From an uncultured Clostridia bacterium (GTDB taxonomy: Bacteria > Bacillota > Clostridia > Lachnospirales > CAG-274), in NCBI GenBank assembly GCA_947631975.1, contig CANRNM010000009.1:1-32192 (forward strand): a stretch of DNA of 32,192 nt, in the 5' to 3' direction. This document shows, in pieces, positions 1 through 31,540 of this stretch; the first letter of the stretch is position 1, and every line of letters starts with the position of its first letter. The position numbers and the translations under genes are program-made. The notes under the pieces were generated by a model. It was not told the origin of the DNA and did no database searches. It saw only the letters and a program-made list of their open reading frames with translations.

Positions 1-562
1 TTCCGGAGCGGGTAACCTTGTCTATATTTTCTATGACCTGAGCCATGACCTTATCCATTGACACAAAGTCATCTCTATTTATATTCTGCGAAATATCCAG
101 TATGCTCTGTTCTGCCTTAACAATGAGCATGTCAGAGCTTTCTCCGCCGTCATATGCCGCGGAGGAGATACCGTCGCCCGCCTTTATAAGCTTTCGGAGT
201 ATGGATTTTTCTTTTACGATATCCACATAAAACCTTGTTTTGGCTGTAGTGGGCGCAAGACTGCTGAGATTGACGAGATATTCTATGCCTCCCACCTGTT
301 CAAGCTGTCCAAGCGATTCGAGCTTATCCTTTGCCACAACAAAGTCAACGGGCTTGTTGTTGTTATAAAGGTCAACAAAAGCGCTGAATATAAGTCTGTG
401 GGCAGGACTGTAGAAATCATCCGCCGAAAGATTTTCAGCCGCTGATCTCACTCCCTCGTCATCGGGATAGAGCATACAGCCCAGCACCATCTGTTCGGCT
501 TCGTTGTCATGAGGCGGTATTCTGTTGATATATGAATTTTCATTGTTATTATCGGGCATCAT
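1..562 (-). CDS. dnaB: Replicative DNA helicase DnaB, N-terminal part (runs off the window)
   Basis: Minus-strand reading MMPDNNNENSYINRIPPHDNEAEQMVLGCMLYPDDEGVRSAAENLSADDFYSPAHRLIFSAFVDL matches the DnaB N-terminal domain; RBS taaggaggca upstream; located just downstream of rplI. Confidence 0.9.
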   Translation of the reverse strand, partial: MMPDNNNENSYINRIPPHDNEAEQMVLGCMLYPDDEGVRSAAENLSADDFYSPAHRLIFSAFVDLYNNNKPVDFVVAKDKLESLGQLEQVGGIEYLVNLSSLAPTTAKTRFYVDIVKEKSILRKLIKAGDGISSAAYDGGESSDMLIVKAEQSILDISQNINRDDFVSMDKVMAQVIENIDKVTRSG

Positions 563-25532: not shown

Positions 25533-26393
25533 TTACGCTCTGAATACAAGCATTTTGTCGCTGAGCGCGGCATAGTCGTTTAAACTTAGGCTTTCGCCCC
25601 GCACTCTCTCGTAATAGCCCAGCTCTTTTAAAACCGAGGCTATGCCTTCCTTGTCAAGAGATGTGATGCCGCTGTTGTAAATACAGTTTACAAGAGTTTT
25701 TCTTCTTTGAGCGAAGGCTGCCTTTATAAACAAAAACATGAACTGTTCGTCCTTCACCTCCACCTCGGGCTTATCGAGAACGGTAAGCTTTATGACGGCG
25801 GAGTCTACATTGGGTCTTGGCATAAAGCAGTTCTGCGGTACATTTGCCACAAGATATGGCTTGCAGTAATACTGTGTAACAAGCGAAAGCGAGCCGTAGT
25901 CCTTTGTGGACGGCGAGGCGTTCATTCTGTACGCCACTTCCTTTTGTATCATTACCGTAAGGCTTTCCATGGGAATATGCTTTTCAAGTATATTCATTAT
26001 TATGGGTGTTGTGATATTATAGGGGAGGTTTGCCACCATTTTGACGGTCATGCCGGGGTGAGCCGATATAATATCGTTTAAATCCACCTTAAGTATGTCC
26101 TCGTTTATTATCTCCACATTGTTATGATCGGAGAGAAGCTCCTCCAAAATTGGCACAAGTGTTTTGTCTATCTCTACGGAAATCACCTTACCCGCCTTTT
26201 TTGCCATTGCCTGCGTGAGCGTACCTATGCCGGGGCCCACCTCTATAACAAGGTCGTTTTCGCCTATGTCGGCAGCGGAAATTATTTTGTCCAGAACTCT
26301 CTCATCCACGAGAAAGTTCTGTCCAAAATTTTTTTTGAAATTAAATTCGTAATGCTTTATTATTTGCTTTGTCTTATAAGCCAGACTTTCCAT
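25533..26393 (-). CDS. ksgA: 16S rRNA (adenine1518/1519-N6)-dimethyltransferase
   Basis: KKNFGQNFLVDERVL, VIEVGPGIGTLTQAMA, MVANLPYNITTPI; start overlaps the alaS stop (TAATG). Confidence 0.95.
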   Translation of the reverse strand: MESLAYKTKQIIKHYEFNFKKNFGQNFLVDERVLDKIISAADIGENDLVIEVGPGIGTLTQAMAKKAGKVISVEIDKTLVPILEELLSDHNNVEIINEDILKVDLNDIISAHPGMTVKMVANLPYNITTPIIMNILEKHIPMESLTVMIQKEVAYRMNASPSTKDYGSLSLVTQYYCKPYLVANVPQNCFMPRPNVDSAVIKLTVLDKPEVEVKDEQFMFLFIKAAFAQRRKTLVNCIYNSGITSLDKEGIASVLKELGYYERVRGESLSLNDYAALSDKMLVFRA

Positions 26394-29029
26394 TATTTTA
26401 AACTTTCCTCAACAGTCTTCATTGCGCTTTCGAGTGCCTGCGGTATCTTTGAAGCGTCCTTGCCTCCCGCCTGAGCCATATTGGGGCGTCCGCCTCCGCC
26501 GCCTCCGCATACGGTCGCAGCGGCTTTGACGATATTCCCTGCGTTTGCTCCCGCTTTAACGGCGGACTCGCTGCACATAACAACAAAGCTGCATTTGCTG
26601 CCTTCGCCGCTTGCAAGAACTATTATGCCGTCAAGCTTATCCTTTATCTGGTCGCCCATCGTCCTTAAGCCGTTCATATCAAGACCCTTGGCTTCGGACA
26701 TAACCACATCTATGCCCTTTACATTTACCTTGCTGTTTATTATATCGTCCACGAGAGAACCGCTCATCTTTGCTTTAAGGCTTTCTATCTCCTTTGAAAG
26801 ACGCTTATTTTCATCCACAATGTGAGCTATTCTCTTGGGTATATCCCCCGTTGTGATCTTGAGAAGGTCGCCTATAGACTTAAGAGCAAATTCCTGCTCC
26901 TCGTAATACGAAAGAGCTCCTGCGCCCGTGAGGGCTTCTATTCTTCTGACGCCCGCAGCCACTCCGTTTTCGGAAAGAAGCTTGAATGTACCGCAGTAAG
27001 CGGAGTTTGTAAGGTGTGTGCCTCCGCAGAATTCTATTGAATATCCGCCTATATCCACTACTCTTACTATATCGCCGTATTTTTCACCGAAAAGCGCCGT
27101 TGCTCCCGTCTTCTTAGCCTCGTCTATGGACATTTCCTTTACTGTTACGGGCAGAGCCTCAAGTATTTTTTCATTCACCTTTTTCTCTATAGTACCGAGG
27201 GTCTCCTTGTCTATGGCTTCAAAATGAGTGAAGTCAAATCTAAGTCTTTTATCATTTACGAAAGAACCCGCCTGCTCAACATGGCTTCCAAGCACTTCCT
27301 TTAAAACAGCCTGCAGAATATGCGTTGCGGTGTGGTTTCTGGCTGTGGAAAGTCGCTTTGCGCCGTCTACCTCCAAGGTGAGGGTATCGCCCGTGTTTAC
27401 CGCGCCCGAAACAACTGTGCCGGTATGAACATATTTATTACCGCCGAACTTTGTGCAGTCCTCGATCTCTATTTTAACATTGTCGTTATAGGCTATACCG
27501 CTGTCGCCTGCCTGACCGCCCATTTCTGCATAGAAAGGCGTATTGTCCATGATTATGGAAACCTTATCGCCCTCGGATGCGCTTTCTGTTATTTCATCAT
27601 CCAAAACTATTGCAAGTACCTTTCCGTCTGCCTTAAGATCGTCATAACCGCAGAACTCCGTGGACATTGCGGGATCTAACCTATGGAATACGGTCTCCTC
27701 GGCGCCCATGTAGGTGTCGGTCGCTCTGGCGTTTCTTGCCCTCGTCCTCTGCTTTTCCATTTCAGCCTTAAATGCTTTTTCATCGAGGCTGAAGCCCTCG
27801 TCGGCAAGTATTTCCTCCATAAGGTCAACGGGGAAGCCGTAGGTATCATACATCTTGAAAGAGTCCTCTCCGCCAAGCACCTTTTTGCCGTTTGCTTTAA
27901 GCTCCTCAAGCTTGGAGGCAAGCATTGCCATACCCGTGTCGAGAGTGGCATAAAATCTTTCTTCCTCCGTAGTGAGCACCTTAAGTATCATATCCTGCTT
28001 TTCAACAAGCTCGGGATATGCCTTGCCCGAATTGTCTATAACCACCTTGCAGAGCTCCGCAAGGAATTTTCTGTCTATACCAAGGAGCTTGCCGTGTCTT
28101 GCCGCCCTTCTCAAAAGTCGTCTCAAAACATAGCCCCTGCCCTCGTTTGAGGGAAGAACGCCGTCTGCTGTCATGAATGTAACGGAACGCACATGGTCTG
28201 TTATGACTCTTATTGAAACATCCTTTTTGTAGTCCTCGCCGTATTTTGCTCCGCATATGCTGCATACGGCATCTCTTATGGCTTTCACGGTGTCTACATC
28301 GAATATTGAATTTACACCCTGCATAACGGTGGCTATTCTTTCAAGACCCATGCCCGTGTCTATGTTGGGATGAGAAAGGTCGGAATAAGAGCCGTCCTCC
28401 TCCTTGTTGAACTGGGTGAAAACAAGGTTCCATATCTCCATGTATCTGTCGCAGTCGCAGCCTACGGTACAGTCGGGCTTTCCGCAGCCGAATTCCTCGC
28501 CCTTATCGTAATATATTTCCGAGCAGGGACCGCAGGGACCTACGCCGTGCTCCCAGAAATTGTCCTCCTTGCCCATTCTGAAAATCCTTTCGGGCGCAAG
28601 ACCTATTTCCTTGTTCCATATGTCATAGGCTTCGTCGTCGTCCTGATAGACCGAAACATAGAGTCTGTCCTCGGGAAGCTCCACTACCTTTGTGAAGAAC
28701 TCCCAAGCCCAAGCGATAGCCTCGTGCTTGAAATAGTCTCCGAATGAGAAATTGCCCAGCATCTCAAAGAATGTGCCGTGTCTTGCCGTCTTTCCCACAT
28801 TTTCGATATCGCCCGTTCTTATGCACTTCTGGCATGTGGTTACCCTTTTCCTCGGGGGTATCTGCTGACCCGTAAAAAAGGGCTTTAAAGGCGCCATGCC
28901 CGAATTGATGAGAAGAAGGCTCTTGTCGTTTTGAGGCACCAAAGAGGCGCTTGCCATTCTGAGATGACCCTTGCTCTCAAAAAATGAGAGATATTTTTCT
29001 CTTATTTCGTTTACACCCATGAATTTCAT
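26393..29029 (-). CDS. alaS: Alanine--tRNA ligase
   Basis: YLSFFESKGHLRMASASLVPQNDKSLLLINSGMAPLKPFF; HTATHILQAVLKEVLG; CGGTHLTNSAYCGTFKL; C-terminal GGGGGGRPNMAQAGGKD. Confidence 0.98.
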   Translation of the reverse strand: MKFMGVNEIREKYLSFFESKGHLRMASASLVPQNDKSLLLINSGMAPLKPFFTGQQIPPRKRVTTCQKCIRTGDIENVGKTARHGTFFEMLGNFSFGDYFKHEAIAWAWEFFTKVVELPEDRLYVSVYQDDDEAYDIWNKEIGLAPERIFRMGKEDNFWEHGVGPCGPCSEIYYDKGEEFGCGKPDCTVGCDCDRYMEIWNLVFTQFNKEEDGSYSDLSHPNIDTGMGLERIATVMQGVNSIFDVDTVKAIRDAVCSICGAKYGEDYKKDVSIRVITDHVRSVTFMTADGVLPSNEGRGYVLRRLLRRAARHGKLLGIDRKFLAELCKVVIDNSGKAYPELVEKQDMILKVLTTEEERFYATLDTGMAMLASKLEELKANGKKVLGGEDSFKMYDTYGFPVDLMEEILADEGFSLDEKAFKAEMEKQRTRARNARATDTYMGAEETVFHRLDPAMSTEFCGYDDLKADGKVLAIVLDDEITESASEGDKVSIIMDNTPFYAEMGGQAGDSGIAYNDNVKIEIEDCTKFGGNKYVHTGTVVSGAVNTGDTLTLEVDGAKRLSTARNHTATHILQAVLKEVLGSHVEQAGSFVNDKRLRFDFTHFEAIDKETLGTIEKKVNEKILEALPVTVKEMSIDEAKKTGATALFGEKYGDIVRVVDIGGYSIEFCGGTHLTNSAYCGTFKLLSENGVAAGVRRIEALTGAGALSYYEEQEFALKSIGDLLKITTGDIPKRIAHIVDENKRLSKEIESLKAKMSGSLVDDIINSKVNVKGIDVVMSEAKGLDMNGLRTMGDQIKDKLDGIIVLASGEGSKCSFVVMCSESAVKAGANAGNIVKAAATVCGGGGGGRPNMAQAGGKDASKIPQALESAMKTVEESLK

Positions 29030-29036
29030 TTTGTTT

Positions 29037-29284
29037 TCCTCCTGTAAATTAAAAAGCCCCCGCTAAAGTGCAGGGGCGAAAATATTTTCACGGTACCACC
29101 CTGATTTACGCTAAAAAGCGTATCTCATAGCTATCGTTAACGCCGATAAAACGGCAGAGTATTGGTCTGCGCGGGATAATGAATATCAAAAGGGAGCTTC
29201 GCCTTACACAGCGCAAATGCTTTCACCTGCCGCATTCTCTCTGGAGCTTATGCATAAGACTACTTATCCTTCCGTTTTAAGCTG
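29037..29284 (-). ncRNA. T-box leader (tRNA-Ala responsive) upstream of alaS
   Basis: T-box AGGGTGGTACCGTG (29102-29089); terminator GCCCCTGCACTTTAGCGGGGGCTTTTT; Stem I closing GGATAA/TTATCC; candidate specifier GCU in GGCGAAGCUCCC; hairpin TACGCTTTTTAGCGTA. Confidence 0.93.
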
Positions 29285-29290
29285 TTAAAT

Positions 29291-29326: not shown

Positions 29327-29791
29327 TTACATTATTTTGTTCAAAATAAAGTATACCACGGTATAGACAAACAGTATAAAACAGGCAAAATAAATGATGG
29401 TGTTGCTTACTGTAATATTAATGGGCAGATAATATACATCCAGAATGAGCGCGGCAATAAATGAAATATTGACGGCAATATACATAGCCTTATTGCTTAG
29501 CATTATATTTCTTTCATCCTTTGAACGAGTGATATACTTCTTTAAAAGTTTTTCATTCTTTAGAAGCTTTAACATACGTAAAATACCGACCGCGCCTATA
29601 ACCGTAAATACCGCCGAAAGGCTCTCATACTGCACAAGCGACCTTCCTTCGAACTTTGCAATGTAGTCTATATTTGTAAACTTAAGCAATATCATTATTA
29701 TGCCTCCCAAAAGATATACCGCATACAGCATATGTTTTAACATATATTCCTTTTTTGCGCCTTCCATATCAAAGTTATTGTTATTTTCCAT
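29327..29791 (-). CDS. Small multi-TM membrane protein, ancestral operon partner of the HTH gene at 31340
   Basis: Four hydrophobic segments in MENNNNFDMEGAKKEYMLKHMLYAVYLLGGIIMILLKF...; start adjacent to the IS110 left end. Confidence 0.75.
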   Translation of the reverse strand: MENNNNFDMEGAKKEYMLKHMLYAVYLLGGIIMILLKFTNIDYIAKFEGRSLVQYESLSAVFTVIGAVGILRMLKLLKNEKLLKKYITRSKDERNIMLSNKAMYIAVNISFIAALILDVYYLPINITVSNTIIYFACFILFVYTVVYFILNKIM

Positions 29792-29819
29792 TATTTTTCC
29801 TCCTCGTATTATATAGTTA

Positions 29820-30023
29820 TAGTGTTTAAAGCCCTGAAACAGGACTTATGTTATAATGTATAAGATACTGTGGATCAGTGAATTCCTCCTACCACATGAT
29901 GGTTTAATATAAGGCTCTGACCACAGTCTCTTTGTACACTTGTTAATTAGTTAGATACCGCATGACGGTTTATTTAGAACGAGGTTACAATCGCAAGGAG
30001 TACCTGTGGCTCTAAACAGTATC
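29820..30023 (+). ncRNA. Candidate IS110 bridge RNA (5' stem-loop, target-binding loop, donor-binding loop)
   Basis: 5' SL AAGcCCTG-AAA-CAGGaCTT (29829-29847). TBL stem GATACTGTGGaTCAG/CTGACCACAGTcTC (29864-29878/29917-29930). DBL stem GTACaCTTG/CAAGgaGTAC (29934-29942/29994-30003). Guide arms match target and donor. Exact 5' and 3' ends unknown. Confidence 0.8.
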
Positions 30024-30051
30024 AAATTTATTTTAAAAGGAGTTTTTCTGT

Positions 30052-31221
30052 ATGATTTTTGTAGGTATCGATGTTGCTAAGAATAAACATGACTGCTTTA
30101 TTATCAATTCTGATGGTGAAATCCTTTCTGATGTATTCACCATAGAAAACAACAAGGTGGGTTTTGATAAGCTTTATGAGAAAATTACTTCCGTTGCTGT
30201 TGATTTGTCCAATATAAAAGTAGGACTTGAGGCTACGGGACATTACAGCTATAACATTCTGGAGTATCTCCTCAATAAGGGTTTATCTGCGTATGTTATA
30301 AACCCACTACATACTAGTCTTTACAGAAAAAGTCTAAGCCTTAGAAAGACGAAAACCGATAAGGTGGACGCTCGCACTATCGCTATGATGTTAATGTCTG
30401 ATGTAGACCTTAAGTCCTACTCAGATACATTATACCACAACCAAGAGCTAAAGTCACTAACTCGTTATCGTTTTGATAAGGTTTCTGAACGTGCCAAGCT
30501 CAAGCAGTCCGTTTCAAGACTTGTTACCATACTCTTCCCAGAGCTTGAAAAGCTTGTCTCAACTATCCATTCAGCTTCGGTATATGCTTTGCTCTGCGAA
30601 TTTCCCGGTGCTTCCCTTATTGCCAATGCAAATATCACAAGGCTTTCAAACTTATTGATAAAGGCTTCAAAGGGAAGACATACTAAAGACTTTGCTTTGA
30701 CTGTAAAGGAAGCTGCCATAAATTCCATAGGCTCATCTATGCCTGCTAAATCTCTTGAATTAAAGCATACCATAAAGCTTATACAAGAACTAAACAGCGA
30801 AATAGATGAAATAGAAGCCGAAATACTTAATATCATGAATGAGATCGATTCTCCTATTTTAAGCATCCCCGGTATCAACTACCGTATGGGAGCAATGATA
30901 CTTGCCGAAATCGGTGATTTCAACAGATTTGATTCTCCCGATAAGATACTTGCTTATGCAGGTCTTTCTCCCTCTACTTATCAATCGGGACAGCTTATAT
31001 CCTCTCATTCAAAAATGGAGAAAAGAGGTTCCAGATACTTGCGATATGCTCTCTTTAATGCTGCAAAATATGTTTGCATATGGGATCCTACCTTTGCCGC
31101 TTATCTTGCCAAAAAACGTGCCGAAGGTAAGCATTATTATGTTGCAGTATCTCATGCAGCCAAAAAGCTTGTAAGAGTTATTTTTCATCTTGTAAAAACA
31201 GGTGAGCTTTATGCAAAATAA
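30052..31221 (+). CDS. IS110-family transposase/recombinase (DEDD_Tnp_IS110 + Transposase_20)
   Basis: FVGIDVAKNKHDCF, VGLEATGHYSYN, KTDKVDARTIAMM; C-terminal IPGINYRMGAMILAEIGDFNRFDSPDKILAYAGLSPSTYQSG...KRGSRYLRYALFNAA. Confidence 0.97.
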   Translation: MIFVGIDVAKNKHDCFIINSDGEILSDVFTIENNKVGFDKLYEKITSVAVDLSNIKVGLEATGHYSYNILEYLLNKGLSAYVINPLHTSLYRKSLSLRKTKTDKVDARTIAMMLMSDVDLKSYSDTLYHNQELKSLTRYRFDKVSERAKLKQSVSRLVTILFPELEKLVSTIHSASVYALLCEFPGASLIANANITRLSNLLIKASKGRHTKDFALTVKEAAINSIGSSMPAKSLELKHTIKLIQELNSEIDEIEAEILNIMNEIDSPILSIPGINYRMGAMILAEIGDFNRFDSPDKILAYAGLSPSTYQSGQLISSHSKMEKRGSRYLRYALFNAAKYVCIWDPTFAAYLAKKRAEGKHYYVAVSHAAKKLVRVIFHLVKTGELYAK

Positions 31222-31247
31222 CCGTTAATTTTTAAACTCCTTCTTTC

Positions 31248-31270
31248 GAGCACCTTTTGATGCTCTTTTT
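31248..31270 (+). terminator. Terminator of the IS110 transposase transcript
   Basis: GAGCA-ccttttga-TGCTC followed by TTTTT. Confidence 0.75.
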
Positions 31271-31339
31271 GTCATGCAGTTTTCAATGTTCTTTTGATTC
31301 AAAATATTTCTTTGGATTTTAATAATTTTGTCTTGACTT

Positions 31340-31540
31340 TTAATAGTTAGTCTTGTATAAAAATATTTCCTCTATGGGCAGTTCAAAAAGCCTCGATATT
31401 TTGAAAGCAAGCTCCAGAGAGGCGACATACTTTTCCTTTTCAAGCGATATGACCGTCTGCCTTGTAACTCCAAGAGCCTCTGCCAGCCCTTCCTGAGAAA
31501 GCCCTCTTTGCTTTCTCAGCTCTTGTATTCTTGTTTTCAT
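31340..31540 (-). CDS. XRE-family HTH regulator (YozG-like, 66 aa) with 3' end replaced by IS110 sequence
   Basis: MKTRIQELRKQRGLSQEGLAEALGVTRQTVISLEKEKYVASLELAFKISRLFELPIEEIFLYK; final TNY* is encoded by the IS right end. Confidence 0.93.
   Translation of the reverse strand: MKTRIQELRKQRGLSQEGLAEALGVTRQTVISLEKEKYVASLELAFKISRLFELPIEEIFLYKTNY

What the first reader, a model, noticed from the sequence alone, without database searches (positions are those of the whole stretch)
29943..29983. Donor-binding-loop guides match the element's own ends
The 5' arm contains TAGTTAG (29948-29954), identical to the right end TAGTTAG (31344-31350) one nt before the core. The 3' arm contains ACGAG (29979-29983), exactly complementary to core plus left end CTCGT (29803-29807). 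The wider arm TTATTTAGAACGAG pairs imperfectly with CTCGTATTATATAG. The boundaries came independently from the operon reconstruction, so this is a cross-check.
Basis: partly seen in the sequence, partly recalled or inferred. Interest (0 to 1): 0.82.

Follow-up and report, generated by a model that had tools for sequence, protein, structure and literature searches.

The report
IS110 bridge RNA matching its ends
This is an ordinary-looking jumping gene (IS110 family) whose own small RNA carries short guides that match the element's two ends and, in a second loop, the ribosome-binding sites into which it inserts; comparison with about 120 relatives shows that the guides and the DNA change together.

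Summary
The window holds an IS110-family insertion sequence (29805-31351, CT core at 29803-29804 and 31352-31353) with a bridge RNA upstream of the recombinase. Two sibling genomes carry the empty site with a single CT, so the ends are established independently. TAGTTAG in the donor loop equals the right end, and ACGAG is the reverse complement of core plus left end. A column scan over 79 distinct relatives puts the strongest donor-RNA covariation on the predicted diagonals (right-end positions 3 and 5 with RNA 29951 and 29953; left-end position 10 with 29981; core with 29982). Two corrections. The left guide stops one base short: position 7 is mismatched and the core C can form only a G-U pair. 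The 'wider arm' pairing is not supported as written; an IS621-like discontiguous pairing fits better. Beyond the finding, the target loop carries TTCCTCCT, an anti-Shine-Dalgarno sequence: 67 of 89 relatives sit just upstream of an opposite-strand start codon (random control 20%). IS900 is a precedent for that habit. No experiment was run: circle formation, RNA expression and activity are inferred from IS621.

The parts
29803..29804 (+). CT core, left copy
   Evidence: Single CT in the empty sites of G001 and G002
29805..31351 (+). IS110-family insertion sequence (cores excluded)
   Evidence: 97% copies L002/L003 end at the same points in other contexts; empty sites
29805..29811 (+). Left end CGTATTA (right-donor half); contains TATTA, the inverted repeat of TAATA at 31341-31345
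   Evidence: Sequence; position 10 covaries with RNA 29981
29864..30023 (+). Bridge RNA gene body (approximate limits)
   Evidence: Consensus fold of 67 distinct relatives with compensatory pairs in the closing stem and both loop stems; RNA ends not determined
29883..29890 (+). Left target guide TTCCTCCT (includes core CT), anti-Shine-Dalgarno sequence
   Evidence: Matches own left target better than permuted targets: 4.87 of 7 vs 3.06 +/- 0.11
29891..29903 (+). Target-loop hairpin ACCA/TGGT
   Evidence: Four pairs, all with two or three standard pair types
29907..29913 (+). Right target guide ATATAAG
   Evidence: Pairs with right target: 3.79 of 5 vs 1.79 +/- 0.13 permuted
29928..30000 (+). 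Donor-binding-loop stem and loop
   Evidence: Compensatory pairs at 29928-29935/29993-30000
29948..29954 (+). Left donor guide TAGTTAG
   Evidence: Identical to 31344-31350; covaries with it at two positions
29957..29969 (+). Donor-loop hairpin ACCG-CATGA-CGGT
   Evidence: All four pairs kept in at least 65 of 67
29972..29973 (+). AU, probable distal part of the right donor guide (partners of positions 14 and 13), followed by looped-out TTAGA 29974-29978
   Evidence: By analogy to IS621 A157-U158 with U159-U160 flipped out; relatives have 2 or 5 nt here; not testable by covariation
29979..29983 (+). Right donor guide ACGAG
   Evidence: Reverse complement of 29803-29807; covaries at positions 9 and 10
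30052..31221 (+). IS110 recombinase, 389 aa; D7, E60, D103, D106, S312 align with the IS621 active site
   Evidence: PF01548 2e-40, PF02371 3.8e-23; NF033542 above cutoff; IS621 8wt6 alignment; residue positions
31333..31351 (+). Right end TTGACTTTTAATAGTTAGT: -35 box plus left-donor half
   Evidence: Joined to core and left end gives TTGACT-17-TATTAT; conserved in nearly all relatives
31352..31353 (+). CT core, right copy
   Evidence: As for the left copy
29327..29791 (-). 154-aa gene whose Shine-Dalgarno sequence was the target
   Evidence: Empty site ...AAGGAGGAAAAATAATG on the minus strand in G001 and G002

Best explanation
The element is an IS110-group insertion sequence that moves by the bridge-RNA mechanism. 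The recombinase cuts it out as a circle in which right end, CT and left end join (...TTAATAGTTAGT-CT-CGTATTA...). That junction builds a promoter (TTGACT-17-TATTAT) that transcribes the bridge RNA and the recombinase gene. [quoted passage not shown] In the first loop, UUCCUCCU and AUAUAAG pair with a target of the type TTCCTC-CT-TATAT, the complement of a ribosome-binding site, and the element recombines into it at CT. Shown here: the ends, the 2-bp core, the RNA fold, guide-donor and guide-target covariation, and the insertion habit. Inferred from IS621: circle, promoter activity, RNA expression, catalysis.
For: Recombinase family and active-site residues. Boundaries and core from empty sites in two sibling genomes and from copies elsewhere. 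Donor covariation on the predicted diagonals: the right-end six-mer and the guide change together among AGTTAG, AGTTGG, AGCTGG, AGCTAG and AGTTTG, and core plus left end and right guide change together among CTCGT, CTTGT, CACGT and, by inspection, CTACT/AGTAG. On the recombinase tree, 13 independent pairs change the same way, none the other way, one shows no RNA change (5/0/1, 3/0/0, 3/0/0, 2/0/0). Consensus fold with compensatory changes. Guide-target matching far above permutation.
Against: Position 7 of the right end is mismatched to the guide in most members (51 of 62) and core position 8 could form only a G-U pair, so the left donor guide is shorter than that of IS621. The single-sequence fold is not better than shuffles (z -1.0). 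No single tree test reaches p < 0.05 because few changes are independent. No transcript, circle or activity was observed.
Confidence: 0.94

Rival explanations
1. The matches are chance resemblances in AT-rich sequence, and the ends are recognised by the protein alone.
For: A 7-mer of the right end occurs somewhere in shuffled non-coding regions in 32% of cases; the right end is almost invariant, so most relatives say nothing.
Against: Correct place and register for both arms: 7e-5. Guide and end change together in several clades, at exactly the predicted columns.
Confidence: 0.02
2. The shared TAGTTAG and ACGAG strings are homologous duplicates (for example old end fragments inside the element) without a guide role.
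For: Both copies lie in one element and could be kept similar by gene conversion.
Against: The similarity is limited to the guide positions. One arm matches as a direct copy and the other as a reverse complement. The target loop, whose partner is host DNA, shows the same two-strand logic.
Confidence: 0.02
3. The element is a dead remnant in which the donor loop is only a fossil.
For: Only one copy in its own genome; inherited matches persist after inactivation.
Against: Intact 389-aa frame with active-site residues, intact ends, 97-98% identical copies at two other sites in a related genome, empty sites in two sibling genomes.
Confidence: 0.1

Closest known systems
IS621 (IS110 group; PMC11208160, PMC11208158)
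   Same: Bridge RNA in the left non-coding end upstream of the recombinase gene; two loops, each with a 5' arm reading the bottom strand and a 3' arm reading the top strand; CT core; discontiguous right donor guide; promoter rebuilt at the circle junction.
   Different: Recombinase is longer (389 vs about 326 aa) and distant. Left donor guide pairs up to position 6 (mismatch at 7, G-U at 8), not 8. Five nucleotides are looped out of the right donor guide instead of two (two in some relatives). Targets are ribosome-binding sites, not REP elements.
IS900 of Mycobacterium avium subsp. paratuberculosis (IS110 family; motif in PMC8141618, title of Doran et al. 1997 cited there)
   Same: Insertion motif CATGNNNNNNTCTCCTT: start codon and Shine-Dalgarno complement in the same order and orientation as here.
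   Different: Its bridge RNA guides were not examined here; the motif includes the start codon, whereas the guides here cover the Shine-Dalgarno part and spacer only.
ISEc21 / seekRNA IS110-type elements (PMC11187229)
   Same: RNA from the upstream non-coding region that matches both target strands.
   Different: The description centres on target matching; donor-end guides of the kind tested here come from the IS621 work.

Membership tests
IS110 family, IS110 group | Recombinase with DEDD RuvC-like and Transposase_20 domains and a catalytic serine | tested here: met
   PF01548 and PF02371, NF033542 above cutoff; D7, E60, D103, D106, S312 align with IS621
IS110 family, IS110 group | Long left non-coding end that holds the bridge RNA, short right end | tested here: met
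   247 bp left vs 130 bp right; fold and covariation in the left end
IS110 family, IS110 group | Short subterminal inverted repeat, not 7-17 bp as in IS1111 | tested here: met
   TAATA / TATTA, 5 bp; longer than the 2-3 bp reported, shorter than IS1111
IS110 family, IS110 group | Scarless 2-bp core shared by target and donor | tested here: met
   Empty sites with single CT
Bridge RNA system | Donor loop whose two arms covary with right end and core-left end | tested here: met
Bridge RNA system | Target loop whose two arms covary with the insertion site | tested here: met
Bridge RNA system | Promoter rebuilt at the circle junction | tested here: met
   TTGACT-17-TATTAT by sequence only; activity not tested
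Bridge RNA system | RNA expressed, bound by the recombinase, directs recombination | not testable with these tools
   Needs experiment
IS621 subtype | Left donor guide paired through position 8, two nucleotides flipped out of the right donor guide | tested here: not met
   Mismatch at 7 and five looped-out nucleotides in this element; two in some relatives
IS1111 group | Bridge RNA in the right end, 7-17 bp inverted repeats | tested here: not met
   RNA is upstream of the gene; repeat is 5 bp

The most novel reading that the evidence does not exclude
A broad clade of Clostridia IS110 elements (36-98% identity) carries bridge RNAs whose target guides copy the anti-Shine-Dalgarno sequence of 16S rRNA. 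They insert antisense just upstream of start codons at almost any gene. In the branch of this element the host Shine-Dalgarno sequence is rebuilt at the junction, so the downstream gene may stay translatable. This would be guide-RNA targeting of a functional signal rather than of a particular locus.
Probability: 0.6. Interest if true: 0.6.

Novelty: new member of a known kind. Interest (0 to 1): 0.48.

Why it matters
It confirms by comparative data alone that the donor-guide logic of IS621 holds in a distant Clostridia branch, with a shorter left guide and a longer looped-out segment, which is useful for choosing new bridge recombinases. It also gives an RNA-guide explanation for a habit known from IS900, insertion at translation start signals: the guide is a near copy of the anti-Shine-Dalgarno sequence, so very many sites per genome would qualify (not counted here).

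Tried and rejected
A single-sequence fold was uninformative (z -1.04), so I relied on the comparative fold. A viral-contig scan added two loci only. Rfam has no bridge RNA match in the window at gathering thresholds. A possible CA core in one branch (L051, L065, L162-L164): the base at position 9 covaries with both loops, and the empty site of L164 exists in G765 at 100%, but a TCAC direct repeat leaves the exact core undecided there. The empty-site search for L163 gave no clean empty site. My first regular-expression tally of guides was constrained by its pattern and misread a few rows; the column scan does not depend on it.

Full report
Observation. All strings named in the finding are at the stated coordinates. 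The 389-aa frame 30052-31221 is an IS110 recombinase with the IS621 active-site residues aligned: D7, E60, D103, D106, S312. By shuffling, the joint match of both arms in place has probability about 7e-5, but a 7-mer of the right end alone turns up somewhere in 32% of shuffled non-coding regions, so the string match alone would be weak evidence.

Boundaries. Two 97% copies in a related rabbit-gut Clostridia genome lie at other sites and end at the same points. Two genomes of the window's own genus carry the window's left flank (to 29802) and right flank (from 31354) separated by exactly 2 bp, reading ...CATTATTTTTCCTC-CT-TGTATAAAA.... The element is therefore 29805-31351 with a CT core, independent of any guide argument.

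Covariation. About 120 relatives were collected. The RNA region was aligned and every donor position tested against every RNA column over 79 distinct elements, with permutation as control. The top same-strand pairs are right-end position 5 with 29953 and position 3 with 29951. The top complementary pairs are left-end position 10 with 29981 and core position 9 with 29982 (donor loop) and 29912 (target loop). These are the predicted diagonals. Examples: right end and guide both AGCTGG (L093, L094, L096), AGTTGG (L120, L124, L098), AGCTAG (L155-L158), AGTTTG (L163). For core plus left end and right guide: CTTGT/ACAAG (L010, L011, L016) and CACGT/ACGTG (L051, L163), and by inspection CTACT/AGTAG (L030; misparsed by the script). 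On a recombinase tree, independent pairs that differ in the donor base differ the same way in the RNA in 13 cases, the opposite way in none, with one case of no RNA difference, a T-G wobble in L008. No single position reaches p < 0.05 alone.

Refinements. In the IS621 structure the left donor guide pairs with positions 1-8 and two nucleotides are flipped out of the right donor guide. Here the left guide AGUUAG pairs with positions 1-6 (plus U at 0), RNA A faces T7, and U faces core C8 (a possible G-U pair). Position 7 is also the tolerant position in the IS621 screen. In some relatives position 7 does match: A/A in L077 and L127, T/T in the L007 and L162-L163 branches. The right guide ACGAG is preceded by UUAGA and a conserved AU. 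The simplest reading is five looped-out nucleotides, against two in IS621 and in the L151-L158 branch. Positions 13-14 scarcely vary, so this part is inference.

RNA and promoter. The comparative fold of 67 distinct sequences gives a target loop and a donor loop with compensatory changes in their stems and hairpins. Joining right end, CT and left end gives TTGACT-17-TATTAT, as IS621 rebuilds its promoter. Transcription was not observed.

Target loop. TTCCTCCT (29883-29890) and ATATAAG (29907-29913) match the insertion site on both strands. Over the relatives the left guide matches its own target at 4.87 of 7 positions (permuted 3.06 +/- 0.11) and the right guide at 3.79 of 5 (permuted 1.79 +/- 0.13). 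One 98% copy (L070) has a T-to-A change in the guide and the matching A in its own target. The target is the complement of a ribosome-binding site: 67 of 89 elements sit 4-14 nt upstream of a start codon of an opposite-strand ORF of at least 50 aa, against 20% at random positions (10% for ATG only; 63 of 89 observed) and 5 of 74 on the other side. In the closer branch (60% identity and above), 56 of 58 junctions keep a Shine-Dalgarno-like 4-mer next to the gene. In the window the element split an HTH regulator and a 154-aa membrane-protein-like gene whose stop and start overlap in the empty sites (TAATG), changing the regulator's end from YKEEK to YKTNY.

Known systems. The donor-guide logic is that described for IS621 (PMC11208160, PMC11208158); this is a distant member. 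Insertion at translation start signals is known for IS900: motif CATGNNNNNNTCTCCTT in PMC8141618, and Doran et al. 1997 as cited there. I found no held paper that links such a habit to bridge-RNA guides, but the library lacks most subscription papers.

Verdict. The finding is real and the interpretation sound. It is a new member of a known kind, with a shorter left donor guide and an anti-Shine-Dalgarno target guide as the points of interest.

Noticed in passing
29883-29913 and loci L002-L167: Target guides of the clade are anti-Shine-Dalgarno sequences; elements sit antisense just upstream of start codons (67 of 89).
   Followed up: yes
29327-29791 (-) and 31343-31540 (-): The element splits a coupled operon of an HTH_3 regulator and a 154-aa gene without a Pfam match; in empty sites stop and start overlap (TAATG), and the insertion replaces the regulator's last three residues EEK by TNY.
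   Followed up: yes
L051, L065, L162, L163, L164: A branch with an apparent CA core in which the changed base pairs with both loops, although T at this core position is described as almost invariant for IS621 relatives; a TCAC direct repeat leaves the exact core open.
   Followed up: partly
29069-29285 (-): T-box leader (RF00230) upstream of an alanyl-tRNA synthetase gene (26393-29029, -).
   Followed up: no
L007 right flank: The right end is followed by CGTATAATTG, which resembles a left end of this family; could be a tandem remnant or a chance target.
   Followed up: no
29883-29890 and the Shine-Dalgarno sequence of the recombinase gene (AAAAGGAG, about 30034-30041): The target guide could pair with the element's own recombinase ribosome-binding site in the same transcript (CUCCU with AGGAG), a possible self-regulation; untested.
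   Followed up: no
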